Shown here: positions 3,885-42,599 of the stretch, piece by piece | Position numbering within the stretch: the first letter of the stretch is position 1 | Layout: every line of letters begins with the position of its first letter | NCBI GenBank assembly: GCA_029204225.1 | Contig: CM055104.1 | Coordinates: 41,125,912 to 41,189,911, forward strand | DNA: 64,000 bases | Source of the DNA: Diphasiastrum complanatum | Lineage: Eukaryota; Streptophyta; Lycopodiopsida; Lycopodiales; Lycopodiaceae | Direction: 5' to 3' | Position numbers and translations under genes: made by a program | Notes under the pieces: model-generated | The model's input: the letters and a program-made list of their open reading frames with translations, nothing else | Databases searched by the model: none | Told to the model about the DNA's origin: nothing

Positions 3885-5143
3885 TCAAACGGAAACTGAT
3901 ATCGGTTGAAAATGTTTAGGTGTCAATCTACTTGTTAACAACAAATTTTCACGTTTTGTTACTCGAGATAACATGACATAAACCAAGCCAGCTGAGAAAT
4001 TTGATCTTATATCTAGAATAGCTTTTTCCTTAATGGTCGTATTTTTGCATATGTAGATATTGTTATGTTGATTTTTTTTTTGGATTTCAGTTTCAATGAT
4101 GATTGTTGTCAATTCATGATTCTTCGAATATTTCAAGGCATTTATATTAGCTATGGTGCCTTTGACTATACCATTTGAAATATCCAAATTTGCAAGTACC
4201 ATCACCTTTGCTCCTATTGCCAATTTTGGAATTTGATGGAACAACGGATCATTGATCCATGTTGTCAAGTCGCTTTCTAATGTAGCGTTTGTTTTAACAG
4301 ATATTTGTAGTATATTAGAGGTAGGAAATAGTTTTTCTAACATGTTGTTGTTGAAATAGAGCACATCTTCTCTATGAGTACATATGATGGTTGTATTATC
4401 ATTTGCTATGTCAAATATGTCGGACCTAGAAAATATGGAACCAATTAGTATTTCATCTATTTTTAATTGTGTTGGCTTTTCAAATCTAATTTCGTTTAGA
4501 AAACGAAGGTATTCGGGATCTTCAACATGTCTAATTTAGTAGGATAGATGCAAGTGTGCTGCAATTTTCAAAATGGAGAGCTCGAAATATGACATATTAA
4601 GCAAACCGATTGTGATTTGTGTTTACAAATGGCTAGAAGCTGTGCATGATCACCCACCAAAAGTAAAATATAATTTTCGAACGAAGTTTCAGATGGATTG
4701 TTTTTTATTTAATTTATTTGATGAATTACATATGTTAATATTTGAGCAGTTAGCATAGACATTTCATCTATCACAATAAATTTTGCCTCAAATATTTGTC
4801 TATGTCGGAAATCGGTTGATAATAGATTTTTTTTATGTAAAGCTGATTTATTGGAATTGCAAACAAGTTGTGCACTGTAAATGTCTGTTTTGCTAAAAGT
4901 TTTTCCACTTCCAAGAGTTCCAGATAGAATAAACAATCTCGATTTTGAGCTTGTAATAATTTTATATATCTTTTCTTGTTCACCGGTAAGAAATAAATTT
5001 TGCATGTTTTCAAATTCAGATTCCAAACGTAAATTTTTTTTCGTATCTTCTGGCAAAGATATACTTTGTGCATTTTCAATTGCAGAATTTGACATTGTTA
5101 ACGTTTTTACTGCTCCTGTACAAGTAGTTTCCTGTCTTATCAA
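3885..5143 (-). pseudogene. Helitron-type Pif1 DNA helicase, broken
   Basis: A SF1B helicase of the kind found at the C-terminal half of Helitron Rep-Hel proteins; it would unwind DNA during rolling-circle-like transposition. The N-terminal open piece (4,709-5,143) carries Walker A, SGTLGSGKTF, and Walker B, FIVIDEMSML. After a disrupted stretch around 4,370-4,700, a second open piece (3,885-4,364) carries the typical C-terminal end: the IGAKVMVLANLD segment (usually GxxVMLLRNLD), the NGTxG-like turn NGIVKGTIANI, and motif VI, AGLVYVMLSRVTKRENLLL. The middle (motifs III-IV) is interrupted by stops, so no full protein can be made. Upstream on the same strand lies the Rep N-terminal remnant. 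Identity as a Pif1/Helitron helicase is secure; whether it belongs to the Helitron2/Helentron branch cannot be told by eye. Confidence 0.88.
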
Positions 5144-5207
5144 TATAATAAAAAAGTGTATAGACTTTTTTTTTTCTACACGTACATATTCCAGATTTCG
5201 TAGAATG

Positions 5208-5886
5208 TTAAATTTCCAATTCTATAGGTCTATATGTGTAAACATCAATTGGATGAAATATCAATGTATTACTTCGATTGATATATCTACATCTAAGACT
5301 TGGAGGAGAGCTATCAACATAATGAACAACCTCATCTGCAGTTAACGTCAAAAAAAAATGAGGAAGTCCCCAATGTTCAACTATTGTTAAGAGATCTTTT
5401 AAATTTCTTCTATGCCAAGATGGTGTGTTTGGAATTTCAGTTGGCAGAGTATATTTCAAAACATGACTGAATATTTGTTGTTCAGATGTTTTTTTATTCT
5501 TTGAGAGAAAGCTGATTATATCTTTTTGTAATACTATTGATGACACACTATTTGATATCAAAAATTGCTTGTCTAATTTGGTATAAGACTATTATATAGG
5601 GCGGATATGAGGTAAAAAGTGAAAAGAAAGGACTTGCTCGCAAGCTCGCATAATGAAGGAAACTAATATTTCCATCGTAAAATCCATGAGCAAATGGAAA
5701 TAAAAAAAGAAACAAGCTTGTTTCTAATGTTAAGATAGGTTCGGCATTAGATTGATTATTATTTACAAGTCGTATATGTTTTGAACAGATTTTATTGTTG
5801 TTTCTTAATTTTACATTTGAATCTTGATAAATATCATGATGGCATTTGTCATTATGTCTCGATAATGGGGTTGTGTATTCTAGCAA
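5208..5886 (-). pseudogene. Helitron Rep N-terminal (Helitron_like_N) remnant
   Basis: Two overlapping frames (5,548-5,886 and 5,208-5,561) together read like the N-terminal region of a Helitron replicase: a hydrophobic FLFPFAHGFYDG segment (LFPFGxGG in relatives), then TPSWHRRNLKDLLTIVEHWG followed by LPHFFLTLTADE, which is Rep motif 1. After motif 1 the homology stops within about 35 residues, and the helicase begins less than 70 bp later. The HUH motif and the two-tyrosine motif that make the nick are therefore absent, apparently by internal deletion. A frameshift separates the two frames near 5,550. The left edge of this relic (higher coordinates) runs into a gypsy gag near 5,850. Confidence 0.75.
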
Positions 5887-11669: not shown

Positions 11670-13749
11670 AGTCCCATGGCACTTCGCCTCTGACTGGTCC
11701 TTGGGATGACAATGAGTCGCATTGTCAAAGTCTGTAGAGAGCATATGTATAGATTTTTTTCTTTGTGCTCCAGAAAAAGTGTAGACATGAGTTCGCTTAC
11801 GTATTTGATGACGATCAGCAAGAACATGGACTTGCCAAATTTTCAATAATAGCAATATGAGTCTGGTGGCCATTTCTAATAACCTTGTTCATCGACAAAT
11901 GGGTAGTCGACACCATCCATCAGAGGATCCCTTGACAAGGCTGGTTGATATTGATCTTGATAGAGCGGCGCTATTTCCCCCAGTGTTATTGTCATGGTAT
12001 CTCTCAATTCGTAGTGTGGATAGGACGTGCTCTCTTGACTGCTTAGTCTATCTAGGTATTCGTGATATGCTTTAACCTGAAGACTTTCTTCGACAGTCAA
12101 TCTTACAAGTTGCGGGCAAGGTGTAGACATTGTAGGCGCTGGTTCTTGCTATGCAGTTGGCCTTTTTGGGCTTGAATTCTCTAGATTTGGCCCTTCAAGC
12201 ACTGTTATACCCGGATTTGGAATTGTACTAGAGGTCTATTGCTTTGTGGAACAACTAGACTTTGATTGGACATTGCCCATTGATGACTTTGGACTTGGTT
12301 GGCAATTGTCGACCCAAGCCTTTTCCTTCCCATTGTCTTGTGGTCTTGAAGACTGCGTGACCATGCTTGCTTGCAAACCTTGTGCCGGTTTTCCGCCAAG
12401 AGTTTGAGTTGCCACAAGTACCTGTTGTAATGTAGCATCCACTGCTTGTTGTAGAAAGTTGGGTAGAATTCTCGTAATTTCTGTTGTTACAATTTGTTTG
12501 ATGGATTCTACCAGTTCTGTCTCTTGTGATGTTGTGGTTATTTGAGGTTGAGATGACACTGTGCACTTTTTGGATTTGGGAGGATTGTCGTATAATCCAC
12601 TAGCCTCAAAACCAAGTGGCACTAAAATTTTTCGTTTGTAGTGCATCTTGAGTGGATTTGTCTGATAACATGGTACATGCTGGTCCTTGTAAGATAATGC
12701 CATCTTTGTTTTTCGTAATTGTTTCAATGGACAATCTAGACATGGATGGTTGATGCCGCATTGTGAACACCAAGGTAAAAAGATTGTTGGATTATCTCGA
12801 TGTGGGCATTCTGATCGATGATGTCTTCCACCACATCCGAAACATCGTACCATGCATAGAATACCATCCCCTCGGAGGTGATAAGCATACACAGGTAACA
12901 ATGTCCCTTCTCTCCACATAATAGAGTGGTAAGTTGTTATGGCCTTCAGTTGAATTCGGGAACAAGCTTGACGATATTACCAAGATTTCCACTCCAACTT
13001 TTCCAGTTGAGAATTATCCTGATGTGCTAGGAACAAAACTCCTGACATCCATTGAATGATTTCTTGATGGCTCGTCGTTAAGTTTGACCTTTCTTGATTC
13101 TGACCTCCAACCTTATGGTCTGCATTATGCCCTTGATTTTTCAGCCGAGGGTTTCGTACTGGACATTCAGTGCGTGCATGATCTTCAAAACAGTGTCCAC
13201 ATTGGTCCGATTGAAGAATTTTCATTCTGCAAGACTTAGGCTCAGGTTGGTCATCCTTTTGCTAATCTCGGTCAACTTTGTGACATGCCGCACTTGGTTC
13301 TGCCTCTTGACTCCGTTTTGAGGCCATGTCTTCCTCTCTTGCATGATTGGCTAACATTGTGAATTTTGGTTCCTCTGATGCCCCATTCGATGATGCAGCA
13401 ATAGAATAGGGATGATCCACTCCTCCATCGAGATCTTTGCTTCCATAAGAGTGACATCTCGACAAATTTGTACAAATGAAGTATAGGATGTCAAGTTTGC
13501 CATGTCTGATCAGATCTCGTTGAGCAGTCTGGCATAATAGTTCATCATTATGATTCCCGAAGGTAGAGGTGGATCACAACTCTTCACGATGATGTATATT
13601 CTATAAGTGTATTGTTGAATAGTTTCATCAAAGAACATTTGTACTTCAGACAACCGTGCAAGTGGAGTTGCCATAGTTAGACAGTGGAGTGTAGTAGAGA
13701 TAGCTGTGTGTTGAATTGCTTCAATGCAAATACAATGGTGGCGTTCCAA
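11652..13749 (-). pseudogene. gag of a non-autonomous (TR-GAG-like) LTR element, unit A
   Basis: Minus-strand gag in several frames. The N-terminal part (13,510-13,749) has a gag-like helix region: LARLSEVQMFFDETIQQYTY. Further on come three zinc knuckles, all CX2CX3HX4C instead of the usual CX2CX4HX4C: CGHCFEDHARTEC (near 13,170-13,210), CFGCGGRHHRSEC and CSQCGINHPCLDC (within the 227-codon frame 12,236-12,919). That frame then runs into a Gln/Thr/Ser-rich tail. A further open frame (11,876-12,130) is acidic and unidentified. There is no protease, reverse transcriptase or integrase before the downstream terminal repeat, which fits gag-only plant elements that borrow pol from relatives. Frames are separated by shifts and stops, so this copy is dead. 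Confidence 0.75.
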
Positions 13750-18561: not shown

Positions 18562-21058
18562 TCAATAATAGCAATATGAGTCTGGTGGCCATTTCTGATA
18601 ACCTTGTTCATCGACAAATGGGTAGTCGACACCATCCATCAGAGGATCCCTTGACAAGGCTGGTTGATATTGATCTTGATAGAGCGGTGCTATTTCCCCT
18701 AGTGTTATTGTCATGGTATCTCTCAATTCGTAGTGTGGATAGGACGTGCTCTCTTGACTGCTTAGTCTATCTAGGTATTCGTGATATGCTTTAACCTGAA
18801 GACTTTCTTCGACAGTCAATCTTACAAATTGCGGGCAAGGTGTAGACATTGTAGGCACTGGTTCTTGCTATGCAGTTGGCCTTTTTGGGCTTGAATTCTC
18901 TATATTTGGCCCTTCAAGCACTGTTATACCCAGATTTGGAATTGTACTAGAGGTCTATTGCATTGTGGAACAACTAGACTTTGATTGGACATTGCCCATT
19001 GATGACTTTGGACTTGGTTGGCAATTGTCGACCCTAGCCTTTTCCTTCCCATTGTCTTGTGGTCTTGAAGACTGCATGACCATGCTTGCTTGCAAACCTT
19101 GTGTCGGTTTTCCGCCAAGAGTTTGAGTTGCCACAGGTACCTGTTGTAATGTAGCATCCACTGTTTGTTGTAGAAAGTTGGGTAGAATTCTCGTAATTTC
19201 TGTTGTTACAATTTGTTTGATGGATTCTACCAGTTCTGTCTCTTGTGATGTTGTGGATATTGATCTTGATAGAGCGGTGCTATTTCCCCTAGTGTTATTG
19301 TCATGGTATCTCTCAATTCGTAGTGTGGATAGGACGTGCTCTCTTGACTGCTTAGTCTATCTAGGTATTCGTGATATGCTTTAACCTGAAGACTTTCTTC
19401 GACAGTCAATCTTACAAATTGCGGGCAAGGTGTAGACATTGTAGGCACTGGTTCTTGCTATGCAGTTGGCCTTTTTGGGCTTGAATTCTCTATATTTGGC
19501 CCTTCAAGCACTGTTATACCCAGATTTGGAATTGTACTAGAGGTCTATTGCATTGTGGAACAACTAGACTTTGATTGGACATTGCCCATTGATGACTTTG
19601 GACTTGGTTGGCAATTGTCGACCCTAGCCTTTTCCTTCCCATTGTCTTGTGGTCTTGAAGACTGCATGACCATGCTTGCTTGCAAACCTTGTGTCGGTTT
19701 TCCGCCAAGAGTTTGAGTTGCCACAGGTACCTGTTGTAATGTAGCATCCACTGTTTGTTGTAGAAAGTTGGGTAGAATTCTCGTAATTTCTGTTGTTACA
19801 ATTTGTTTGATGGATTCTACCAGTTCTGTCTCTTGTGATGTTGTGGTTATTTGAGGTTGAGATGACACTGTGCACTTTTTGGATTTGGGAGGATTGTCGT
19901 ATAATCCACTAGCCTCAAAACCAAGTGGCACTAAAATTTTTCGTTTGTAGTGCATCTTGAGTGGATTTGTCTGATAACATGGTACATGCTGGTCCTTGTA
20001 AGATAATGCCATCTTTGTTTTTCGTAATTGTTTCAATGGACAATCTAGACATGGATGGTTGATGCCGCATTGTGAACACCAAGGTAAAAAGATTGTTGGA
20101 TTATCTCGATGTGGGCATTCTGATCGATGATGTCTTCCACCACATCCGAAACATCGTACCATGCATAGAATACCATCCCCTCGGAGGTGATAAGCATACA
20201 CAGGTAACAATGTCCCTTCTCTCCACATAATAGAGTGGTAAGTTGTTATGGCCTTCAGTTGAATTCGGGAACAAGCTTGACGATATTACCAAGATTTCCA
20301 CTCCAACTTTTCCAGTTGAGAATTGTCCTGATGTGCTCGGAACAAAACTCCTGACATCCATTGAATGATTTCTTGATGGATCGTCGTTAAGTTTGACCTT
20401 TCATGATTCTGACCTCCAACCTTATGGTCTGCATTATGCCCTTGATTTTTCAGCCGAGGGTTTCGTACTGGACATTCAGTGCATGCATGATCTTCAAAAC
20501 AGTGTCCACACTGGTCCGATTGAAGAATTTTCATTCTGCAAGACTTAGGCTCAGGTTGGTTATCCTTTTGCTGATCTCGGTCAACTTTGTGACATGCCGC
20601 ACTTGGTTCTGCCTCTTGACTCCGTTTTGAGGCCATGTCTTCCTCTCTTGCATGATTGGCTAACATTTTGAATTTTGGTTCCTCTGATGCCCCATTCGAT
20701 GATGCAGCAATAGAATAGGGATGATCCACTCCTCCATCGAGATCTTTGCTTCCATAAGAGTGGCATCTCGACAAATTTGTACAAATGAAGTATAGGATGT
20801 CAAGTTTGCCATGTCTGATCAGATCTCGTTGAGCAGTCTGGCATAGTAGTTCATCATTATGATTCCCGAAGGTAGAGGTGGATCACAACTCTTCACGATG
20901 ATGTATATTCTATAAGTGTATTGTTGAATAGTTTCATCAGAGAACATTTGTACTTCAGACAACCGTGCAAGTGGAGTTGCCATAGTTAGACAGTGGAGTG
21001 TAGTAGAGATAGCTGTGTGTTGAATTGCTTCAATGCAAATACAATGGTAGTGTTCCAA
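18562..21058 (-). pseudogene. gag of TR-GAG-like element, unit B, with internal duplication
   Basis: Same gag as in unit A but less broken in the middle: 20,286-20,774 is open for 162 codons and includes the first zinc knuckle (CGHCFEDHACTEC). The second and third knuckles lie in 19,545-20,228. Downstream, the 590-bp tandem duplication (18,667-19,256 and 19,257-19,846) repeats the C-terminal part and creates a chimeric frame ending at 19,227, so the coding order is scrambled. The gag assembles particles in active relatives; this copy could not supply a normal protein. Confidence 0.72.
18667..19846. repeat. nested 590-bp tandem duplication
   Basis: 18,667-19,256 is repeated at 19,257-19,846, apparently without differences by eye. 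Both copies carry the unit-B variants and not the unit-A ones, so this happened after the A/B duplication. Only one base of microhomology is seen at the junction. Confidence 0.95.
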
Positions 21059-31053: not shown

Positions 31054-31369
31054 GCCCCATGCATCCTCCTCCCTCACCCATGCATACACTTTTTTGAGCT
31101 AAAAAGTGAGGAGGAGGATGCATGTATGGGCCCCTCCCCATGCATGTATGGCCCCCTCCCATGTATGCATATTGCACCTCCCCTTGGCCCCACTCCGCAA
31201 TCCAAAATTCAAACGTCTTTGTGCCCCCTCTCCCTCCGTTGGGCATCAGTACATGTATTTTGTGCTCCCAAATTCATAGAATGGAACAACATTTGATATA
31301 TAAATGTATATTTTTCTATGAAATCGATACATGTTTTTTTTTTCTATGCTATCTATATATGTTTAGATC

Positions 31370-33005
31370 TTAATTTAGTACTACTACATCATCCTTTGCA
31401 CCATCATCAATAAAGGGAGGCTTAAGCCTTGCCCTAGCTAGTATGCTCAGGATGATTTCTTGTCTGAATCTGTACACCTGGCTTGATGTGTACTCAGGAA
31501 GTGTAAACTGCAAAATAGAACATTCATGTATTAGTAATGGCTAAAAACATCAACAAAATAGAAAACTAATCATGATTCCAAAAATAAGAATAAACAGAAT
31601 TTATTACCTTAGAAATATCAACATCTTCCGGAAGGTTGAACCACTCAAGAAATAACTTGGCATTGTATAACGTGTACCACCCACAGCTGAATGAATCATT
31701 TTGCTGTGGTGACTGCAAAATAATTCAGCACAAAAGAAATCGATTATGAAACAGAATGAATTAGAATGAAACAATTACATTAGAATACTGATTTCAACAT
31801 GCTATTAAGAAAGACAGAGTTTACTTCCAAACTCACGATCTCCCAATCCACGGAATGGGAAACATCTGTAGGAATATATTTACTTAAATATGGCAGATAT
31901 ATATCTACATCCTTATGCATATTTTTTGTTGAATTCATCTTGACACAAAAACCTTTGATACTATTATTTACAGATCTCTTAATAGAGATCATGTTTAAAC
32001 TCCAATGGTCACTGCAAAATAAGATTGTAAGTACTTTAGCGGCAATTCTGAGAACTATTTAAATTGAAAATATCAATGTTAATGCATAAAACAGGAAGAA
32101 GCACTTAATATATCTTACTTGGTATGATAAGGAATGACCAGATACTTTGTTGCTGGTGTGAATCCACTTGTCAGACACTGTGACAATGTGTCATTATTCT
32201 CCTTGAAGGCCTGGAGCAGAAAGTTACTCAGCACCAACAACTCGTTGGATGAATTTCTTGCAATGTCAAATTGCAAGAGTGTCAGACCGGACTCTATCAT
32301 AGGATCGCTGATAGAAGTCCGTTTGTCTTTGAGATCCAAGTAATCTAAAACTCTAAAATTAATACTAAAATCAAGTTCATCTAGTCTAAAACAAAAAGGA
32401 ATACCAATTTTATCTATAGCATCCAATATGTCTTTCTCAAATCTAAGATACTCATCCGAATCTATATATGTATAAAAATTTGGAGGAGGAGGAGGAGGTG
32501 GATGTGTAGTATCTATAGGAATTAAAGCGGTATCCAAAACAGCTGTAGCTATACTTACAGCATTATCAACAACAACGTTATCTACAATTGATTTCGGGTC
32601 AGGTTTCACAGAATCTGTGGTGTCTACGATCTTTGCTTTCTTTGGAGATCTCTTGGGGGCACTCTGCTTCCTAGGACGCTTCGTAGGAAGATCAGTCCTA
32701 TCTACAGGTGTTGGCCTGGGAGCAGAAGACTGAGATACGTGCAACCTACAGAACCTATCCCTTATTCTCATCAGGAGCTAAAAATCCTTGGGCATTATTG
32801 TGACTCTCTTGGAATGAATGGCAAGCAAAAATGAATCTTCAAAAAAAAGACTAAGGTAATCTTCAGCAGCCTCCTAAAGGCACTGAAGAGCACTGGGTGT
32901 AAATCTGACCAACTGTCCGAGATCATTTCTTGTTATGTTTCAGATAGCACGGTAGAATGGAGCCCTTGGGATCAATAACGCAGTTGATCTCTGGTACTTA
33001 CGTAT
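31370..33005 (-). pseudogene. histone H3-like domain fused to Ulp1-like (C48) protease, copy 1
   Basis: Four exons on the minus strand. Exon 1 (about 33,005 to 32,119) begins inside an H3 fold (RKYQRSTALLIPRAPFY ... [16 protein letters not shown] ... [15 protein letters not shown]), passes in frame through a basic Pro/Lys linker, and enters a protease domain ending PYHTN. Exon 2 (32,011-31,825) begins DHWSLNM with the catalytic His. Exon 3 (31,712-31,608) has QQNDSFSCGW with the oxyanion Gln and catalytic Cys. Exon 4 (31,507-31,370) ends at a stop. All introns have GT..AG borders and join in phase. The usual catalytic Asp is Asn (KMNS). Three in-frame stops lie in the H3 part (32,940, 32,874 and 32,778), each one C-to-T from Arg or Gln; the protease part is open. 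The 5' end is cut off by a copia fragment. C48 enzymes cleave SUMO or related modifiers. Confidence 0.85.
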
Positions 33006-33240
33006 CTACAGTCTTGACAGACATGTAACTCAACTTTATCATGAGGATAGTCTAGATCAAGAACAATAGAATGTTTAGACATTTGTTGTACATCAGCATG
33101 ATTCAAGTGACCAAGTCTATAATGCCAAAGTAGACCTTTATTTGCATGAATAGAAGTATTGGGCACCTTACTAGAGGCAGAAAAGCAATGACTTATCTAT
33201 AAAAGTATTCATGCCTCTTTCTGAGTGCTATGATCTTGCA
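33006..33240 (-). pseudogene. Ty1/copia GAG-pre-integrase fragment
   Basis: A short piece with LLWHYRLGHLNHADVQQMSK and, later, HVCQDC: the zinc-binding GAG-pre-integrase domain (His, His, Cys, Cys) that precedes copia integrase. It lies between the two H3-Ulp1 copies and joins copy 1 directly at the RKYQ codons, so it marks an insertion or deletion junction. Confidence 0.85.
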
Positions 33241-33249
33241 TGTCCTATC

Positions 33250-34917
33250 AACAATGAAGGGCTGAAGCCTTGCCCTAGCCAGTATGCTCAGGCTGAAGCC
33301 TTGCTTGATGTGTACTCAGGAAGTGTAAACTACGAGATAGAACATTCATGTATTAGTAATGGCTAAAAACATCAACAAAATAGAAAACCAATCATGATTC
33401 CAAAAATAAGAATAAACAAAGTTTATTACCTTAGAAATATCAACATTTTCCTGGAGGTTGAACCACTTAAAAAATAACTTTGCATTGTATAATGTGTACC
33501 ACCCACAACTGAATGAATCATTTTGCTAGGGTGATTGCAAAAAAATTCAGCACACAAGAAATCAATTATGAAAAAAAATGAATTAGAATGAAACAAATAC
33601 ATTAGAATACTGATTTCAAAATGTTGTTAAGAAAGACAAAATTTACCTCCAAACTAACTTTTGGCCAGTCCACAGAATGGGGAACATCTGTTGAAATATA
33701 TTTACTTAAATATGGAAGGTATATATCTACATCCTTATGCGTATTGCTAGCCGAGTTCATCTTGACACAAAAACCTTTAATAGTATTATCTACAGATCTC
33801 TTAATAGAGATCAGGTTTAAACTCCAGTGGTCACTGCAAAATAAGACTGAAATTTTTTTAGCTGCAATTCTGAGAACGATTTCCATTAATAATGGCAATG
33901 ATAAAGCATTAAACAACAAGAAGCATTTAATATATCTTACTTGGTATGATAAGGGACAAGCAAATATTTTGTTGCTGGTGTGAATATGCTAGTCAGACAC
34001 TGTGACAATGTGTCTTTATTCTCCTTGAAGGCTTGAAGCAAAAAGTTACTCAGCACCAACAACTCATTGGATGAATCTCTTGCAATGTCATATTGCAGGA
34101 GTGTAAGCCCAGACTCTATCACATGATCACTGATAGAAACCCGTCTATTTTTGAGATCCAAACAATCAACAGCTCTATAATTTATACTAAAGTCAAGTTC
34201 CTCTATTCTAAAACAAAAATGAGTACCAATTTTATCTACAGCATCGGCTATGTCCTTCTCAAATTTAAGATAATCATCAAGATCTATATATGTATAAAGA
34301 TTTGAAGGAGGAGGAGATGGTGGATGTGTAGTATCTACAGGAATTACAGGGGTATCCAAAATCAATGTAGCTATATTTACAAAATTATCAAGAGCAGCGT
34401 TATCTACAATTGGTTCCGGGTTAGGCTTCGCAGATTCTGTGGTATCTACTCTCCTTACTTTCTTCAAAGCTCTCTTGGGGGTTTCCTGCTTCGGTAGAAA
34501 GATCAGTCCTATCTAGAGGAACAGGTCTGGCAGCAGCAAACTAAGATACATGTAATTTGCAAAATCTCTCCCTCATTCTCATTAGCAGCTGAAAGCCTGT
34601 GTGCATTATGGTGACTCTCTTGGAATGAATAGCAAAAGGCTCATATAGTCTTCAGCAACTTCCTGAAGGCACTGAAGAATAGTGGGTGTGAATCTAACAA
34701 GCTGTCCGAGATCATTTCTAGTTATGTTTCGGATGACACGGTAGAATGGAGCTCTGGGAATCAATAGAGCGGTTGATCTCTGATACTTACGTATTTCAGA
34801 GAGCCACCTGCTGCGGTTGCGCATTCTAGGTCTAGCAGGAGGTGTAATGGCAACCGCAGGAGCTGAGGACGAGCCATCAGAGAAGAAATCCCTCCTTGTC
34901 TGCTTTCTCCTATCCAT
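33250..34917 (-). pseudogene. histone H3-like domain fused to Ulp1-like (C48) protease, copy 2
   Basis: Retains the N-terminus. The ATG at 34,917 gives MDRRKQTRRD (compare MARTKQTARK of H3), a Ser/Pro/Arg tail, then EIRKYQRSTALLIPRAPFY, ITRNDLGQLVRFTP and LQEVAEDYMSL. Loop 1 has one residue more than canonical H3, as in CENH3 variants. A small deletion near 34,640 shifts the frame before helix 3; [11 protein letters not shown] continues in another frame. The linker has a stop at 34,541 (CAG to TAG) and another frameshift, then a long open piece (33,937-34,467) leads to the protease. Exon 2 is 33,833-33,647. Exon 3 has lost its acceptor (AG to AA at 33,535-33,536) and has TAG in place of the oxyanion Gln codon (33,526). 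Exon 4 carries a deletion. The gene is dead, but all domains are visible. Upstream lies a shared divergent regulatory region. Confidence 0.85.
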
Positions 34918-35244
34918 GGAAGTGTACTAGGGGATATCGCACTTGTGCATGATGACTAGGATGAGCAGGGAAGGATTATGAAGCACTCGCAGAGGACCGA
35001 TATGTACGAAAAAAATGTACGGTATATCGGACCTATGCGAGCCGAATATTAGAGAGATCGATTAGTATAGTAGACAGATGCACAAGTCCGATATGAGGAG
35101 ACACGTAGGCAAAAATATCGGACATGTGCGCATGGAAGATAGTAGGCTATATATTGTGAAGGAGGCGCACAAGTGCGATATGCAGAGCGAAAAAAAAAAA
35201 GTGAAAAAAATTCATCGGAGTTTGTGATTTTATATCATGGTTCG

Positions 35245-35504
35245 CACGTGCAAAAGAACGTTTTGTCGCACGTGTGGGATTTGTATGGCCAAATGCGAGA
35301 GCAACACGTGTCAGGTTGTCATTTTACACATGTGGGATTTCTATAGCCAAATGCGAGAGCGACACGTGTTGTCGAACTGACGAATGAACACGAGACACGT
35401 GTATTGATGTCATTTCACACGTGTCCAATTGTCACCTCACACGTGTCAGTGCCTGCAGTCCAATCGAAAGTAAACACGTGTCCATTGACCGTTGACCACA
35501 CGTG
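35245..35504. promoter_or_regulatory. cluster of nine CACGTG (G-box) sites
   Basis: Perfect CACGTG at 35,245, 35,269, 35,305, 35,363, 35,396, 35,418, 35,440, 35,475 and 35,499, most inside ACACGTGT. Part of the cluster is a tandem duplication of about 58 bp containing CCAAATGCGAGAGC. In plants ACACGTGT is bound by bZIP (ABA-type) and bHLH factors. The cluster ends 12 bp before a TATA-like sequence, upstream of the plus-strand gene. Confidence 0.8.
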
Positions 35505-35515
35505 TAAACATTCAG

Positions 35516-35524
35516 TATAAAAAA
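35516..35524 (+). promoter_or_regulatory. TATA-box-like sequence
   Basis: TATAAAAAA about 250 bp before the proposed ATG (35,765) of the plus-strand gene and directly after the G-box cluster. A (CA)n microsatellite at about 35,632-35,655 lies in the presumed leader. Confidence 0.5.
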
Positions 35525-35619
35525 CACGAAACTCGATTAATTTTTTACTTTTTTCTTTCTCAAAATTCACAGCATATCGCTCTTGTGCACGCGCATTCTT
35601 GTCCATTTTTTGCAACGAG

Positions 35620-35657
<38 letters not shown>

Positions 35658-35764
35658 ATTCAGTAGCTACCTGTCGTACATATCCCTCTTGTGCGCGATC
35701 TTTAGAGTTAGTTTTGTTTCGTTTGTTCTCCCTCGCGCACAAGTGAGATATCTATCGTAGTTCC

Positions 35765-37280
35765 ATGGCCTCTTCCTCATGATCTACACGAGATTCAGGC
35801 TCGAGTTCATTTTTTACTAAATTTGGGATTATTGAGAATCTAGACTACTTCCACAGACTATTCAGACCATATTTACATGTTTTCAAGACTGCACAACCAA
35901 ATTCTGACGTATTTTATGAACATTATGTTAGATTCAATTATATACTCAGTAAGTCTGTTATCCCCATAGGTTCACTCCAGTACATGCTTTATACTGATCT
36001 TGTTCATTTCTTCCCAGCTTTCAGACATAGACTAGATAGAATGTTCACCAAATTGTTTGATCTTTTCAAAAGTAGTTCAATGTGTCCTTATTGCAACAAG
36101 AAATGTCGATTGGTTGAATATCATAGTGGTTTCGTACTTTTTCCGTTAGTTCAGATCCCAGATGATGAGGAAGTTTCTGTTGCTGACTTTCCTATGGCAT
36201 CATCCTCTGTTCAGTCATCTATTAAGGATATCAATCACTTCCTAATCGACACCCCTAATAAGAAAAGTGACTTTATTGATGTAAATATTGATGTGCTCCG
36301 AGATTCTTTTATTGGCCAAAATACATCTACTGATGAATCGATCCCTATAGAGAAGTCTAAATGTCTTTTCAATTTGCCTGTATATTATATAAATGACGAT
36401 GTATATTTTACTACAGCTGATTTATGTAAGTTTTTTGACTATTGTGAATATGAGATTTTATGTTTATTATTCGGCACAATTTCCGAATTCTCCGACTTTG
36501 TAGATTTTGAAACAAATGACCTTGTTGCTGGAATTGATTTTGATGATGAGGAGGGACTTATGACCGGTGAAGAATGACTGACTAAGACTTTATCAAATAT
36601 TGCTGAGGATGGGCGAGACAGACCATCCGATGAAGAAATCACGCCATTTCAATCTCAAATGGGCTTTCCTCATCCATCATTAATGCATTTCACTGATGAT
36701 TCCACTTCAGTAGGTGGTCATTATATTGATCATCCTAATCTGCTTGCTGCTGTTGATGAAGAATGTATAAGTGTTTAAACTTCCTTGCATTAGAATGTTC
36801 TTAACCACTGAATGTGTTTTTTCTAACATATTTTTTATTGCGGGATGCTCTCATAATTGATGATTTTGCTGTGAGACGAGGTGGTTTCAGACAACATGCA
36901 TCCTCGTTTCAGAGAGATAGTGGACTTGGCCACTATCTTAGGCATTTCCTAAAGAATGAGATCTGTACTGCTCATTCCAAGCTGAGCCCAGTTGGGGAGA
37001 GTCTTATAATGGCAGTTAAAGCTTTATCATTGTATCTAGAGGACATAAATTTGTTAAGACAAATAAGATCATTTTTGTCAAAAGATCTTATGTTTTGAAC
37101 ATTCTAGGTTTTATTGATGGGAATGTTCCTTTAAGGAACTCCCATTATTCATTGTATTCTACTTATATTGAACTTAGTGGAAATAAGGATAATGCAAATC
37201 TATTAGATGCATACTCTATCAGAGAATTTCTTTTTGACAATACTGCCATAGAATCTGACACACAAGCTGATGATGAATAG
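35765..37280 (+). pseudogene. unrecognised multi-exon gene, divergent from H3-Ulp1 gene
   Basis: Proposed ATG at 35,765. The frame runs to 36,778 interrupted by two TGA codons (35,780 and 36,575), each explained by CGA to TGA. I do not recognise the protein. It has an aromatic-rich N-terminal region (YFHRLFRPYLHVF), a possible metal site (MCPYCNKKCRLVEYH, about residues 110-125), an acidic Ser/Asp-rich middle and a very acidic end (FDDEEGLMTGEE). A probable second exon (about 36,840-37,095) contains SSFQRDSGLGHYLRHFLKNE, and a third (from about 37,109, after a TCTAG acceptor) ends at a stop at 37,280. The acceptor before exon 2 seems mutated (GCG for CAG). It shares the motif-rich intergenic region with the H3-Ulp1 gene, so co-expression is likely. 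A transposon accessory protein is possible. Confidence 0.5.
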
Positions 37281-37407
37281 CTTTGTATTTTGTTATAATA
37301 CAATCAATACATTTACATTGAGTATTTCTCCTCTCTTGTTCAATGAATTTGCAAGCAATTCTGAACATGTCATGATTTGATGACAATGATGATCTTCTAC
37401 TCAACAA

Positions 37408-39894
37408 TCATCTAATTTTATCTTCTTGTATAAACTTGCATGCTTTTCTAAACTTGTTGTATTGTGCGGACTTTGTTATATGTCGACTCTGAACTCTGCG
37501 GTAGAACCACTGAAACAATTGACAAATGTAGTTTCGTTTTTCATTGGTTCCTCCATGTTGTGTATTTCGATGAAATGCTGCTCGTGCTTGCCAATGTGAC
37601 TTCTCCATCCCTTGTGATGACCATACACTCAAGCTTCCATATGTGTTTGCAAAAAATGTTGTATGATCTCTTAGTATGTGCTGCATATGTCAAAATCATA
37701 ATGTTAGTTTTATGTTTGGATCTAAACATATATGAAAAATTGAAAGCATCTTGAAGAATTTATACTAACCATATAATGAGTGATGTGAACTTCTCCCCAT
37801 GCTTTTGATACTGCATTAACAAACTCGACACAAGTCCTTTGGACAGCTTTCTTATCAATCTCAAAGTATTTATCTTTTCTTAAAATAACAATCATACTGT
37901 CAAACTTCTTCCATACATCAACTTTTAGTACTCTAGTTTTGCCGTCTTTCTCGAAGTCCTGAGTGGCAACAATAATATCTGTCCAGACTGAGTGTTGAAT
38001 ATTAGAAGCCTTACCAGTATAATTTGATAGGAAACGATGTGCTTTTGCTCCTCCTATGCTTGGCTTAGTTGGCATGTTCCCATTCTTTCCTAGAACCTTT
38101 TCATCTTTTTGAAGTTTGACATGTCCCTTATGAAGTCCTGCTTTTGATAAAACATCTTCTAATCGAGAGATAGCTTCTTTTGCTAATGATGTTATCTTAG
38201 TATTCCAAGCAAAAACTATATGAAGATAAATGATCTTTTCTATTAATCTAACTTCTGCATGAAGAGTGCAAAGGGGATAGGTAGCACAGGCTTCTAATTT
38301 GGATCTGCATATTCTCTAGAAATTCATGTACTCCTAGTAACATCTTTTGCCATTCTCATGCGGTACAAACAAGGGTGTTTTGATGTAACACTGTGAGAGA
38401 CATTATACATACAATTCAATGTTTTCAAATCACCTGCTAAGTGCCATTCAACATTGAAGTCTCCAATTCCTGGAACATTGAAGTCTCCATATGGACCTTG
38501 ATGATCCTAGGATAAGATGTCCTTGAGAATATCTATGATAATATATCATGATCCTCCTTCAGCACCTGTCCAAAAAATTAATTAGACTTAGTTAACAATG
38601 AGTTAATACTATTCAATGAATGTAATGTAATAATGAGACTAGTTACCTGAAATGCTGCCAACCACCATATATCATTTTCTGACTAGACATTGAATCTGAA
38701 ATCTTCTTGGTCCTCCGTTTGTGATAGAGCACCATTCATAAGAGTTATACTAACCCTCTCCATCTTCTGCCCTTTCACAATTTCTGACTCATCTAATTTA
38801 AGTACTATGATTATTTTGCCATTCACCTTTTCACAGGTTATATCATAGAATGTGATGATGTATCTCAACAAGTAATTTAGATCAACAAATAAGTTGTTTG
38901 ATGAATTGTAGAATATCGATCTTTCATCAGTTTCATACACCTCCTCAATATGAAATGGAGTTCCAGTGATCTTATGCATACCTATGTTTAATGTGTCCCT
39001 CTCTTTCTTCAAGTGATATGTCCTAGGGATTGGGACTTTTCTAATTTGAACTTGCTTAAAAGCTTCTCTAATTGATTTAAATATTGTTGCATATGCTTCC
39101 CTGCTAATACCTGCAAAATCACAAGCACCCTGAACTATAGTCTTATCTAAATTTTTTTGAATGTCCACCATCAAAGACTTTGTTATTTTACACTTTACAT
39201 TTGAACTCCTATTGTTCATCATGATACGCTCAGTGGATTTGCCTGTCAATATTGTGCCCAATGACACTCCTAGTGAAGCATTGTCTTTAATATTCTGAGG
39301 AGCTACTAATGCAGATCTGCAAAAAAAATAGATAGTTAACAGAACATTACCATAGCTGAAATTAAATCCAAATTTCATTGAAAAACCTACAAAAATCAGG
39401 ATATACTTACTCGAATGCACATTTCGATAACCTCCTTTTGAAATCGTTTGAATATCCTTGCAACTTTGTCGCTTTCGCTTCTTACTTTCAGCCTTCTTCT
39501 TTGCCAATTCCACATCCTTCAATAATTGTAAGTTTTCAAAACGAATAGATTGTAAGATTGATTGCATTTGCTCTAGTTCTGATTTGATATTGATTGTTAT
39601 CTTCTATAATGATTCATTATTTTTTTTAAGTTGTTCATTTTTTTCTAATGTCTTTTGGAGATGACAATCTTTATTCTAACAATAAGAAGATATCCGAATT
39701 TGCTCACCTTCTAAAATGTGAACTTTATTCATATAAAGTTGTTTTCCATGGTTCTGCAATCTTTCACAATATCCTAGTAATCCACTATGCCCATTACATA
39801 TCCATGTAACTAAATGAGTTATTGAGGAGAATGTGGGATGTGTCAAAGTGCTTGGATCTTGTGGATATAATGTTTCATCTATCCACAAATCCAA
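37408..39894 (-). pseudogene. multi-exon gene resembling a DDE-type transposase
   Basis: Minus-strand exons read as one protein. A coiled-coil, Lys/Glu-rich N-terminal part (39,894-39,412) ends in RNVHSS. Exon 39,316-38,647 contains KIIIVLKLDESEIVKGQK, with an acidic residue after a hydrophobic strand. Exon about 38,565-38,342 contains EWHLAGDLKTLNCMYN and a Cys pair. Exon 38,304-37,770 contains TLHAEVRLIEKIIYL and ends HITHYM. The last exon (37,680-37,408) contains HILRDHTTFF then SSQGMEKSHWQARAAFHRNT. The 37,770/37,680 junction has GT..AG and keeps frame. The order Asp, GDLK with Cys pair, Glu in GMEKSHW recalls RNase-H-fold transposase-like proteins repeated in several eukaryotes; I cannot name the superfamily. 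Stops include TAG at 38,683 and 38,507, consistent with C to T. Some exon borders (38,304/38,342, 39,316/39,411) are unclear. It converges on the plus-strand gene. Confidence 0.55.
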
Positions 39895-40629
39895 CTTTTA
39901 TTTTTTTCCTTCTGCCCTGTAACGAGAACGATTCTCAGCAGATATTGAATGCCTTTGCCTCCTCTTCTCTACAAAGGTGCCAAATCAATAGGAATATCCA
40001 CATGTAGATGATACAATGTCATCATCAAAAGAAACAATAGAGTAATCAGTTGCATCAAAGTACTATGACCAGATTCTATGAAGTAAAACAAAATACTCAT
40101 CTTTGATTATATTATATACTCTGTACGATCAATCCAATCTCCATGCTTGTATGCTTGATTCAAATTTCAAAATGCCGCTCATTTTTTCATTCCAATAGAC
40201 GCTCATATTTCCATTCCAATGTGATGATCACGTTCATAATTGGAGATGGCACCCATATTTTCATTCTCGTGGAAGGAATGCATATGTAAACATTTTGTCT
40301 TTTTTTTTAATTCGAATTTGGGGATGGCGGTCATATTCTAGATAGTGAAAATATTGCCCTTTTCGTAACCAATGGAGGGAATATTTTTGAATTTAGTCAA
40401 GTTATACTGCGAACTGTTTATAGTTCTTAACTATGACTATAGACACTATGGTTAGATCATTGGGAGTTGGGGAGGCCTTGGGAGTGGTGGGGGCAAGCAA
40501 ATAAACAATATTGTTTTTTTTATTTTGATATTTTTTTATATCCTACATGGCATTCCTTAAAGGGTCTTCTTGATATTGAGAACTCCTCTAATGAAATTTC
40601 TTTCTGAGATGTAGCTCGGAAGCTATATC
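39895..40629. other. nothing recognised
   Basis: AT-rich, no conserved frame; it may be the upstream end of the transposase-like gene. Confidence 0.45.
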
Positions 40630-40860
40630 TCACACTTCATATAACGTGCTCAAGATGTCCCAGACTTCTTTGGATATCTGGGCTTCAGATACCTGGCCGA
40701 TCTGAGTATCCAAAATGTTGAGGATGATCAGCGCAAAAGCTTTGCCATCCTTCAGCTTCCATTTGGCGATTGTTGTGTCGTCAGCTTCGGGTTTCCCTTC
40801 TGCACCTATAACAAAAAAAAAAAAAAAAAAAAAAACGACAAGTAATAGCGCGAGAACCAT
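40630..40860 (-). pseudogene. Ty1/copia gag fragment
   Basis: Minus-strand frame ending WKLKDGKAFALIILNILDTQ, then IGQVSEAQISKEVWDILSTL, typical of the UBN2/gag region of copia elements. It begins after a run of about 23 A/T, which also opens an artificial poly-Phe stretch. No flanking pol. Confidence 0.75.
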
Positions 40861-42599
40861 GGGTTACTGCATGTGTGAGCCCGGAACCTTTGTTGCGTTA
40901 TGTGAGAAGAGCACCTCCTCGAAACTAAGTGAACATTGGCAGAGAGAGATAGATCGTTATCGGCTGCTGATATTTCCTATGTTATATCCATCCAATTGTA
41001 AAGAGAGAACCAAGAAAACAAGAATGTTGTAGGAAAAATCACATAGAAAACAAGAATGTTGTAAGAAAAATCACATAGATCATTTTCCAACTCTCTAAGT
41101 CCATCCTCCTTTATAGGAAAAGAGCCACATCTACATGTGGGCCAAGTGACATATTAGCGATACAAATTGTTGATTAATGGCTTAAGGATACTGTGTAATT
41201 ATTTACGATAATCGAGCTCTATATCTTCAGTTGCAAAGGCTTTTGTTAAACTAATTAAAAGGTAGAGAATTATTCATCTTTTTTTGTAGTAAAGATTTTT
41301 GGAATATCTTGATAATCCATTGTAATATACATATTTGATAACATTTTTTTAATGATCATATTAAACCCCTATTCATTGTGGTGATTTTATGCGTTTGAAC
41401 TAATATGACTTCTCAGCTTGATGCTATGATGGTATAAAAGCTTTATATGCTTGTCGTGCTATGTGCAATTACTAAGTACTAACATCGTCTTTGTTGAAGG
41501 GTTGAAAAACCTATTTGTGAAATATTAGTCTGAATCAAAATAGGGATGAGGTTTTATAATTTGGTTGTACTAAAAATATTTATAAGAATTAATTTGAAGG
41601 TGTAATTGCTGTTTAAATTATGATATCTTTTAGAGTGATAAGGGAGAGTAAAATATAGAGAATTGTGACCAATATTGTTAACATGGTATACAAACAACCA
41701 ACAATCTATTTTCTACCTAGCATTTAGATATGTGGTAAAATTTTAGACCCAAGGAAATATGAAATAATATTTATCCTTCATTTGGTATCTAATTATGTGG
41801 CCTAAAGTCTTGGAAGGCATATCCCTTATGATTTTTAACTAGATATTGACAAATTATTCCTAGTTGATTGTCGAAAGGTGAGTAGTTTGAACCTTTAGTA
41901 GACAAGGGCACCTAGGTAGTTAGCATTTCATCGCTTATAAATAACAAAAATCTTTTACCTCAAAATGGCGTGACATACTAAAAGTTCAACAAATAAGATA
42001 ATTTGAACTTTTCAAGCTATAGGCAAATTTTCATAGGTGAAATAAAACTAGCCTTTCCATGAATTTGTTATCTCTCAAATAACTAGATCTTTCCATTAAT
42101 TTTAACTTCAACATTCATAGTGATATTTTTCAACTTTCAACTATGCCCCATGGCTCCAAATTCAAAACAATCTCGACACAATATTGACTTATTTTCTAGC
42201 TGATTAGCAATTCCATAACAAATTGAGATTTCTACATTAGTCACACTACATGACAACTACTTTGCAATCACTTCAATTAAATGACATAAGAGTTTGCACT
42301 TGTTTGTACTCTATCATATCAATGAATAGTCTACAACATCCTTGTCATATCGACATGTTATTTCATTTCTTTCTCAAAATGTGCGACAATGAAAAACTTG
42401 TCATTCCCCATGGGCATTTCTGTGATGGAGATGTGTAACAATTGAGTAACACATTCAAGCTGGCTGCAGAACTGCCCATGGTTAAAGATCAAATTCAACT
42501 TTATTCTAGGTTGAAGTCAATTTTCACATGAAAGTCATTTCTATGTTGAGATATGACTTTTAACGTTTTTAATTTGATAAGATATACCCTATGAATGGC
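40861..42599. other. AT-rich DNA without recognisable genes
   Basis: A 31-bp tandem duplication (GAAAACAAGAATGTTGTA core) lies at about 41,010-41,075. Nothing else is supported. Confidence 0.5.

What the first reader, a model, noticed from the sequence alone, without database searches (positions are those of the whole stretch)
31370..34917. Histone H3/CENH3-like domain fused in frame to a Ulp1-like SUMO protease, in two decayed copies
Both copies encode, in one minus-strand gene, an H3 histone fold (EIRKYQRSTALLIP..., [15 protein letters not shown]) and a C48 protease with the catalytic His (DHWSL), oxyanion Gln (QQND) and Cys (SCGW) spread over four exons with phase-consistent GT..AG introns. 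Loop 1 has one extra residue over canonical H3, as in CENH3. I know of no described H3-Ulp1 fusion. A protein that enters nucleosomes and removes SUMO could target an element to chromatin or to centromeres, or counter silencing. The domain calls are secure; the single-protein reading rests on in-frame continuity in copy 1 (apart from C-to-T stops).
Basis: partly seen in the sequence, partly recalled or inferred. Interest (0 to 1): 0.92.

Follow-up and report, generated by a model that had tools for sequence, protein, structure and literature searches.

The report
Transposon-borne histone H3–Ulp1 protease fusion
A many-copy DNA transposon in this genome carries one gene in which an H3-type histone domain is joined in frame to a SUMO-protease-type (Ulp1) domain, and the predicted protein would likely enter the host's chromatin and strip SUMO there to help the transposon escape silencing.

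Summary
Both window copies encode an H3 fold followed in frame by a Ulp1/C48 domain over four exons (copy-1 read-through: Pfam Histone E=2e-20, C48 E=6.8e-7). The gene belongs to a dispersed DNA transposon: an H3 probe gave 1217 first-look candidates, of which 40 were scored and matched, and copy L009 has an unbroken 336-codon exon 1 from the H3 start into the Ulp1 part. Among 27 copies the H3 fold shows purifying selection (index 0.44, 0.36-0.58), while tail and linker are near 1. The element has CATTAG..CTAATG inverted ends, no target-site duplication at three insertions, and a transposase whose relative is predicted to fold like RAG1/Transib. A word-based search of 5.8 billion proteins returned none with both domains. 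Fungal hAT elements that captured a host H3 gene are known (PMC6710886), but without Ulp1. CENH3 ancestry is unresolved. Best reading: a transposon-made chromatin effector whose histone part docks into nucleosomes and whose protease removes SUMO to relieve silencing. Anatomy and selection are shown; function is inferred.

The parts
31238..33005 (-). Copy 1: fragment of the transposon carrying the H3-Ulp1 gene without its 5' tail
   Evidence: Homology to genome copies starts at 31238 and stops at 33005
32119..33005 (-). Copy 1 exon 1: H3 fold, linker, N-terminal part of the Ulp1 domain; three in-frame stops
   Evidence: Pfam Histone 2e-20 on the read-through with X at stops
31837..32011 (-). 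Copy 1 exon 2: DHWSL (catalytic His) and the Asn at the third triad position
31608..31712 (-). Copy 1 exon 3: PQQND (oxyanion Gln) and SCGW (catalytic Cys)
31370..31507 (-). Copy 1 exon 4 with stop codon
33008..33246 (-). Copia fragment (gag-pre-integrase) between the two copies
   Evidence: Pfam gag_pre-integrs 2.7e-9 on ORF 32972-33196; limits
33247..40593 (.). Copy 2: transposon lacking its left end (about 2 kb by comparison with L023), with H3-Ulp1 gene, ORF2, transposase gene and right end
33941..34917 (-). Copy 2 exon 1, from the ATG (MDRRKQT...); frameshifts and a stop
33659..33833 (-). Copy 2 exon 2
33430..33534 (-). Copy 2 exon 3 (one stop; acceptor AA)
33250..33329 (-). Copy 2 exon 4 remnant
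35269..35506 (.). Cluster of ACACGTG/CACGTGT palindromes in the divergent intergenic region
   Evidence: also present in the five other copies looked at there
35765..37280 (+). ORF2, decayed, unknown function
   Evidence: no significant Pfam match
37408..39897 (-). Transposase gene, decayed, several exons; D, D, C(2)C, H(4)H and E motifs seen across copies
   Evidence: relatives P0012-P0028; RAG1/Transib-like predicted fold of relative P0013
40559..40593 (.). Right terminal inverted repeat (CATTAGAGGAGTTC... read on the minus strand)
40630..40863 (-). Copia gag flanking the right end (sequence into which the element inserted)
   Evidence: Pfam Retrotran_gag_2 1.3e-9

Best explanation
A many-copy DNA transposon carries a gene whose first exon joins an H3 histone fold in frame to a Ulp1/C48 protease domain, and the protein likely works as the element's anti-silencing effector: the H3 part is predicted to pair with H4 and dock into nucleosomes, and the protease part would remove SUMO from silencing proteins nearby. 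Shown by sequence: the in-frame fusion, its exon structure, its residence in the element beside a transposase gene and two unknown genes, retention of the H3 DNA-contact and H3:H3' interface residues and of the Ulp1 His, Gln and Cys in most copies, and purifying selection on the H3 fold. Inferred: that the exons are spliced into one protein, nucleosome entry, protease activity, SUMO as substrate, relief of silencing as the benefit.
For: Both domains in one frame; stop-free exon-1 frames from the H3 start into the Ulp1 part in L009, L011 and L027 and L040. Splice sites mostly kept: GT 12 of 13 (one not covered), 10 of 11, 7 of 9; AG 10 of 11, 9 of 10, 7 of 7. Selection index (27 copies): H3 0.44 (0.36-0.58), tail 1.03, linker 1.01, Ulp1 N part 0.69 (0.53-1.03); Ulp1 exons 2-4 0.63 (0.45-0.95, 10 copies), transposase exon 0.75 (0.65-0.90, 14 copies). 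Conserved H3 contacts: V117 and T118 21 of 21, R116 20 of 21, F84 21 of 21, R83 19 of 21, H113 20 of 21, D123 18 of 19. Ulp1: His 10 of 10 covered, Asn 11 of 11, second Gln 9 of 10, Cys 8 of 10; collinear with SENP2. Precedents for the logic: VANC anti-silencing proteins and Ulp1-bearing KIU genes in VANDALs (PMC5735166, PMC13317346, passages); transposon-borne TET/JBP (PMC12730594, passages).
Against: No transcript, protein or activity data. No copy with all four exons open was found among the 29 fetched non-window copies. The PDB match of the Ulp1 part alone is weak (SENP2 E=0.15), and the third triad residue is Asn. Ulp1 intervals for exon 2, exon 4 and the N part include 1; in transversions only the linker also drops to 0.61. 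In Arabidopsis the SUMO-interaction motif of MOM1 is dispensable for silencing and MOM1 did not co-purify with SUMO2 (PMC6084981, abstract and that section), so the obvious SUMO-linked target is not a proven one.
Confidence: 0.5

Rival explanations
1. Centromere reading: the H3 part is a CENH3 derivative that takes the element's protease to centromeric chromatin, where it would alter SUMO-controlled CENH3 loading and bias insertion or inheritance.
For: Loop 1 has the length of rice CENH3, and LLIP..APF, R..IT, AAED and EDS match plant CENH3 rather than H3 (recalled sequences). SUMO and ULP1d control alphaKNL2 targeting and CENH3 loading in Arabidopsis (PMC12903445, passages).
Against: Overall identity is slightly higher to canonical H3; the tree does not resolve it; F replaces the loop-1 W; the start MDRRKQT recalls H3's KQT. 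The 40 scored copies lie at scattered positions on 17 large contigs.
Confidence: 0.15
2. The protease serves transposition itself (for example de-SUMOylating the transposase or ORF2 protein), and the H3 fold is only a chromatin or dimerisation module of that complex.
For: The gene travels with a transposase gene; both domains show signs of selection.
Against: No direct evidence; the retained R83/F84 and R116-T118 DNA contacts suggest nucleosome binding, not mere dimerisation.
Confidence: 0.2
3. The H3 piece is a passively captured host gene without function that lies next to a Ulp1 gene.
For: Capture and amplification of a host H3 gene by hAT transposons is documented in fungi, where in one lineage all captured copies are inactivated (PMC6710886, abstract and passages); plant transposons often capture gene fragments (PMC13317346, passages); the sampled copies are decayed.
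Against: H3 selection index 0.44 against about 1 for tail and linker; the H3 part is diverged and lies in the same open frame as the Ulp1 part in several copies, with no intron or boundary between them.
Confidence: 0.07

Closest known systems
KIU (Kaonashi) Ulp1 genes of VANDAL/non-TIR MULEs
   Same: Plant DNA transposon with a Ulp1 domain in an accessory protein, linked to anti-silencing (PMC13317346, passages)
   Different: That review's text has no occurrence of 'histone'; those are MULEs, while this element has short inverted ends and a transposase whose relative is predicted to fold like RAG1/Transib
hAT transposons with captured histone H3 in fungi (Pseudocercospora fijiensis, Pyrenophora tritici-repentis and kin)
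   Same: A DNA transposon that carries and multiplies an H3 sequence (PMC6710886, abstract and passages)
   Different: There a host H3 transcript was captured by a hAT element with 8-bp target-site duplications; 'Ulp1' and 'fusion' do not occur in that paper. Here the H3 is diverged, fused to Ulp1 and selected within the element
VANC anti-silencing proteins of VANDAL21/VANDAL6
   Same: Transposon-made protein acting on the element's own chromatin; short motif arrays in non-coding DNA (PMC5735166, passages)
   Different: A relation to VANC was not tested; here the candidate effector has an H3 fold and a protease domain
CMCT clade transposons (EnSpm/CACTA, Mirage, Chapaev, Transib, Plavaka, ESTA, Lanisha)
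   Same: CA..TG ends, C(2)C and H(4)H motifs, RAG1-like predicted fold (PMC12730594, passages)
   Different: No 2-5 bp target-site duplication at the three insertions examined; no Pfam match
Histone H3 / CENH3
   Same: H3 fold, L1 and L2 DNA contacts, four-helix-bundle residues
   Different: Shortened tail, long C-terminal extension with a protease domain, R63 and L65 replaced
Ulp1/SENP (C48) proteases
   Same: His, Gln, Cys and order of motifs; Pfam C48
   Different: Asn at the Asp position; very divergent; preceded by H3

Membership tests
Histone H3 | Core histone fold by profile | tested here: met
   Pfam PF00125 E=1.5e-14 to 2.4e-25; the first 40 Foldseek matches of the exon-1 model are chains of nucleosome entries (E 7.6e-4 to 0.032, identity 40-58%), the model being confident only in part of the H3 region
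Histone H3 | DNA-contact (R83, F84, R116-T118) and H3:H3' (H113, D123) residues | tested here: met
   Each conserved in 18-21 of 19-21 copies; H3 numbering recalled
CENH3 | Groups with CENH3 in a tree | tested here: inconclusive
   Unresolved (recalled references); host CENH3 could not be fetched (genome search did not complete)
CENH3 | Longer loop 1 | tested here: met
   One residue over H3, same length as recalled rice CENH3
CENH3 | Centromeric localisation | not testable with these tools
   Needs ChIP or imaging
Peptidase C48 (Ulp1) | Profile match above curated cut-off | tested here: met
   29.8 bits (window copy 1) and 22.2 bits (L024), read-throughs with X, against 20.7
Peptidase C48 (Ulp1) | His-Asp-Cys triad plus Gln | tested here: inconclusive
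   His, Gln and Cys kept in most copies; Asn at the Asp position by alignment
CMCT clade transposon | C(2)C and H(3-4)H between second D and last E | tested here: met
   HPCLYC and H-x4-H in element copies; both H invariant in the alignment of 17 relatives, some of them incomplete
CMCT clade transposon | 5'-CA..TG-3' ends | tested here: met
   CATTAG..CTAATG
CMCT clade transposon | 2-5 bp target-site duplication | tested here: not met
   None at E3, L022 or the nested miniature element in L009 with its empty site; three insertions only, so not filed as a member
KIU/VANDAL MULE | MULE transposase in the element | tested here: not met
   No MULE Pfam match in the decayed transposase ORFs; a relative's predicted fold is RAG1/Transib-like

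The most novel reading that the evidence does not exclude
A selfish histone: a transposon has evolved its own H3 variant with a built-in SUMO protease that is assembled into nucleosomes and strips SUMO from the host's silencing or kinetochore machinery from inside the chromatin.
Probability: 0.4. Interest if true: 0.93.

Novelty: new variant of a known kind. Interest (0 to 1): 0.77.

Why it matters
Transposons are known to carry DNA demethylases, methyltransferases, VANC factors and Ulp1 domains, and in fungi captured H3 genes. A core histone that is fused to a SUMO protease and kept under selection inside a transposon would be a new way to act on chromatin from within the nucleosome. It would make a testable link between SUMO and transposon silencing, and offer a natural tethering module for editing SUMO at chromatin. 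The RAG1/Transib-like transposase of its element, apparently without target-site duplication, is of interest in its own right.

Tried and rejected
Rejected: chance similarity (E-values, many genomic copies); assembly artefact (same fusion in copies on many contigs); unrelated H3 insertion beside a protease gene (no intron or boundary between them, continuous open frames); recent tandem duplication of the window copies; retroviral or Polinton origin (short inverted ends, transposase whose relative folds like RAG1).

Led nowhere: viral contig scans with transposase and Ulp1 alignments and a prokaryotic contig scan with the transposase alignment: no relatives confirmed; PDB sequence search with the transposase profile (none); Pfam on 17 transposase relatives (only scattered weak matches); Rfam (none); H3 tree (unresolved); fold of exon 1 beyond the H3 part (mean pLDDT 49). 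Paper searches aimed at the fusion or at transposon-borne histones: 20 of 50 listed; 20 of 38; 2 of 2; 20 of 539; 12 of 115; 2 of 2. No listed title or abstract start tells of an H3-Ulp1 fusion; transposon capture of H3 is in print (PMC6710886, in the listings, read), and histone fragments in a Helentron too (PMC4067079, passages). Only open-licence PMC papers were searchable. Not done because the genome search stopped answering: host CENH3 and H3 comparison, H3-less relatives of the element, more target-site tests, total copy number.

Full report
OBSERVATION. The region 31370-34917 holds two minus-strand copies of one gene. Translation of copy 1 reads in one frame from the H3 fold (IRKYQRSTALLIPRAPFYR...[14 protein letters not shown]) through a proline-rich linker to PYHT, with three stops, then across three GT..AG introns (phase 2, 0, 0) to DHWSL, PQQND...SCGW and a final stop at 31370. 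Copy 2 has the 5' end (ATG 34917, MDRRKQT...) but frameshifts, stops and one broken acceptor. On the copy-1 read-through with X at stops, Pfam gives Histone E=2e-20 and Peptidase_C48 E=6.8e-7, both above their curated cut-offs.

IT IS A TRANSPOSON GENE. The window's own genome (1.74 Gb; the tool gives it no name) could be searched twice before the server stopped answering. A 327-bp H3 probe had 1217 first-look candidates; 40 were scored and matched at 86-100% identity, the window itself included, on 17 large contigs and two small ones. I fetched 20 of these loci, three stretches around right ends (one of them, E20, showed no H3 gene) and seven more loci. Comparison shows one element. Its homology ends at window 40593: of 40 scored right-end matches (6594 candidates), 38 stop within 8 bases of that point; the other two are the window itself and one 95% copy that runs on into the flank. 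Left ends are present in L022, L023 and E3. The ends are inverted repeats, CATTAGAGGAGTTC..., identical over 35 bp between the two ends of E3. From left to right the element carries an unknown ORF (+), the H3-Ulp1 gene (-), ORF2 (+) and a transposase gene (-). Adding the left part of L023 to copy 2 gives a length of about 9.4 kb (inferred). The window element lies in copia sequence: copia gag beyond its right end, and a copia gag-pre-integrase piece next to its broken left side. Copy 1 is a separate fragment, closer to other genome copies than to copy 2.

FUSION IN OTHER COPIES. In L009 exon 1 is a stop-free frame of 336 codons from MDRRKQT to PYHT; L011 is stop-free over 309 codons and L027 over about 250, and L040 over about 254. 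Single matches running in frame from the H3 part into the Ulp1 part, stops allowed, are also seen in L022, L023, L024 and L042. The remaining copies are frameshifted, truncated or cut by the fetched stretch. None of the 29 fetched non-window copies with H3 matches has all four exons open. Splice sites are kept in most copies that reach them (window copies included, near-twins L019 and L020 left out: GT 12 of 13 with one not covered, 10 of 11, 7 of 9; AG 10 of 11, 9 of 10, 7 of 7).

SELECTION. I compared observed nonsynonymous changes between copies with those expected if the same base changes fell at random in the same codons. With 27 of 31 copies (left out: L017 and L026 as badly decayed or cut, L019 and L020 as near-twins; some other close pairs stayed in), the index was 0.44 for the H3 fold (bootstrap 0.36-0.58), 1.03 for the tail (0.80-1.46), 1.01 for the linker (0.83-1.28) and 0.69 (0.53-1.03) for the Ulp1 part of exon 1 (the first run with 20 copies gave 0.42, 1.04, 1.04, 0.64 in the same order). 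Transversions only gave H3 0.36, Ulp1 part 0.45, linker 0.61 and tail 7.66 on few synonymous changes. Ulp1 exon 2 gave 0.70 (0.48-1.19), exon 3 with Gln and Cys 0.39 (0.24-0.72), exon 4 0.65 (0.41-1.06), the three together 0.63 (0.45-0.95); a transposase exon 0.75 (0.65-0.90) and ORF2 0.82 (0.64-1.07). Decay after insertion pushes all values towards 1, so the H3 fold was constrained while the element was active. This is the strongest evidence that the histone part does work for the transposon.

WHAT THE PROTEIN KEEPS. On the 18-21 copies covering each site, the loop residues that touch DNA in H3 (R83, F84, R116, V117, T118) and the H3:H3' interface residues (H113, D123, L126, R129) are nearly invariant (numbering recalled). 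R63 and L65 are replaced, and R42, R69 and R72 vary. The Ulp1 part keeps His in 10 of 10 covering copies (the match of L018 starts behind it), the oxyanion Gln in 9 of 10 and Cys in 8 of 10, two copies having Tyr; the third triad position is Asn in 11 of 11. Of three later copies with exon 3, two keep Cys and one has Tyr. By profile alone the Ulp1 part finds SENP2 only at E=0.15, but collinearly through His, Gln and Cys. A predicted model of copy 1 exon 1 (mean pLDDT 49) is confident only in part of the H3 region; its first 40 Foldseek matches are chains of nucleosome entries, one of them with E below 0.001.

H3 OR CENH3? Loop length and several residues look CENH3-like; the first residues (KQT) and the F at the end of loop 1 look H3-like. 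The tree puts the transposon sequences on a long branch without resolution. I leave this open.

MECHANISM. I commit to an anti-silencing effector: the H3 fold would pair with H4 and enter nucleosomes, and the protease would remove SUMO from silencing proteins around the element. Shown: fusion, residence, conservation, selection. Inferred: everything biochemical. Supporting context from papers: Ulp1-bearing KIU genes in VANDAL elements and VANC anti-silencing (PMC13317346 and PMC5735166, passages); transposon-borne TET/JBP in fungi (PMC12730594, passages). Against: the SUMO-interaction motif of MOM1 is reported dispensable for silencing (PMC6084981, abstract and that section). The centromere rival rests on SUMO control of alphaKNL2 and CENH3 loading (PMC12903445, passages) but lacks any sign of clustering here. 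A cluster of ACACGTG palindromes lies between the divergent H3-Ulp1 and ORF2 genes in the window and in five other copies looked at; it could be a binding array, untested.

NOVELTY. The 5.8-billion-protein search with the full fusion gave 11 hits, all matching the histone part only (18-20% of the query); the Ulp1 half gave none among 7995 scored candidates. That search needs shared 5-residue words, so distant relatives could be missed. Six paper searches aimed at this (partly capped listings) showed no H3-Ulp1 fusion. Capture of a host H3 gene by hAT transposons is known in fungi: hundreds of RIP-inactivated copies in Pseudocercospora fijiensis and tens of potentially active ones in Pyrenophora tritici-repentis (PMC6710886, abstract and passages), and a mosquito Helentron carries broken histone fragments (PMC4067079, passages). 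Those are captured host genes without a protease. So neither a transposon with H3 nor one with Ulp1 is new; the fusion of the two, with a diverged H3 under selection, is what I found no report of. I rate it a new variant of a known kind.

Noticed in passing
37408-39897 and P0012-P0028: A transposase family without Pfam match; one relative's predicted fold is RAG1/Transib-like, and the element shows no target-site duplication at three insertions. 17 relatives came from sources without organism names.
   Followed up: partly
35269-35506: Cluster of ACACGTG/CACGTGT palindromes in the divergent promoter region, also present in other copies; recalls the motif arrays that VANC proteins bind.
   Followed up: partly
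35765-37280: ORF2, a decayed accessory protein with a CPYC motif and acidic stretches; no family found.
   Followed up: partly
L023:872-2100: Fourth gene of the element at its left end (missing in the window), unknown function.
   Followed up: partly
L009:6714-7095: Miniature element with the same ends nested in the transposase gene, with a readable empty site in other copies.
   Followed up: yes
12236-12976 and 19545-20285: Near-identical 246-aa ORFs 7.3 kb apart on the minus strand: a local duplication or paired repeats.
   Followed up: no
3885-5221: Pieces of a PIF1-type helicase (Pfam matches below cut-off), possibly a Helitron remnant.
   Followed up: no
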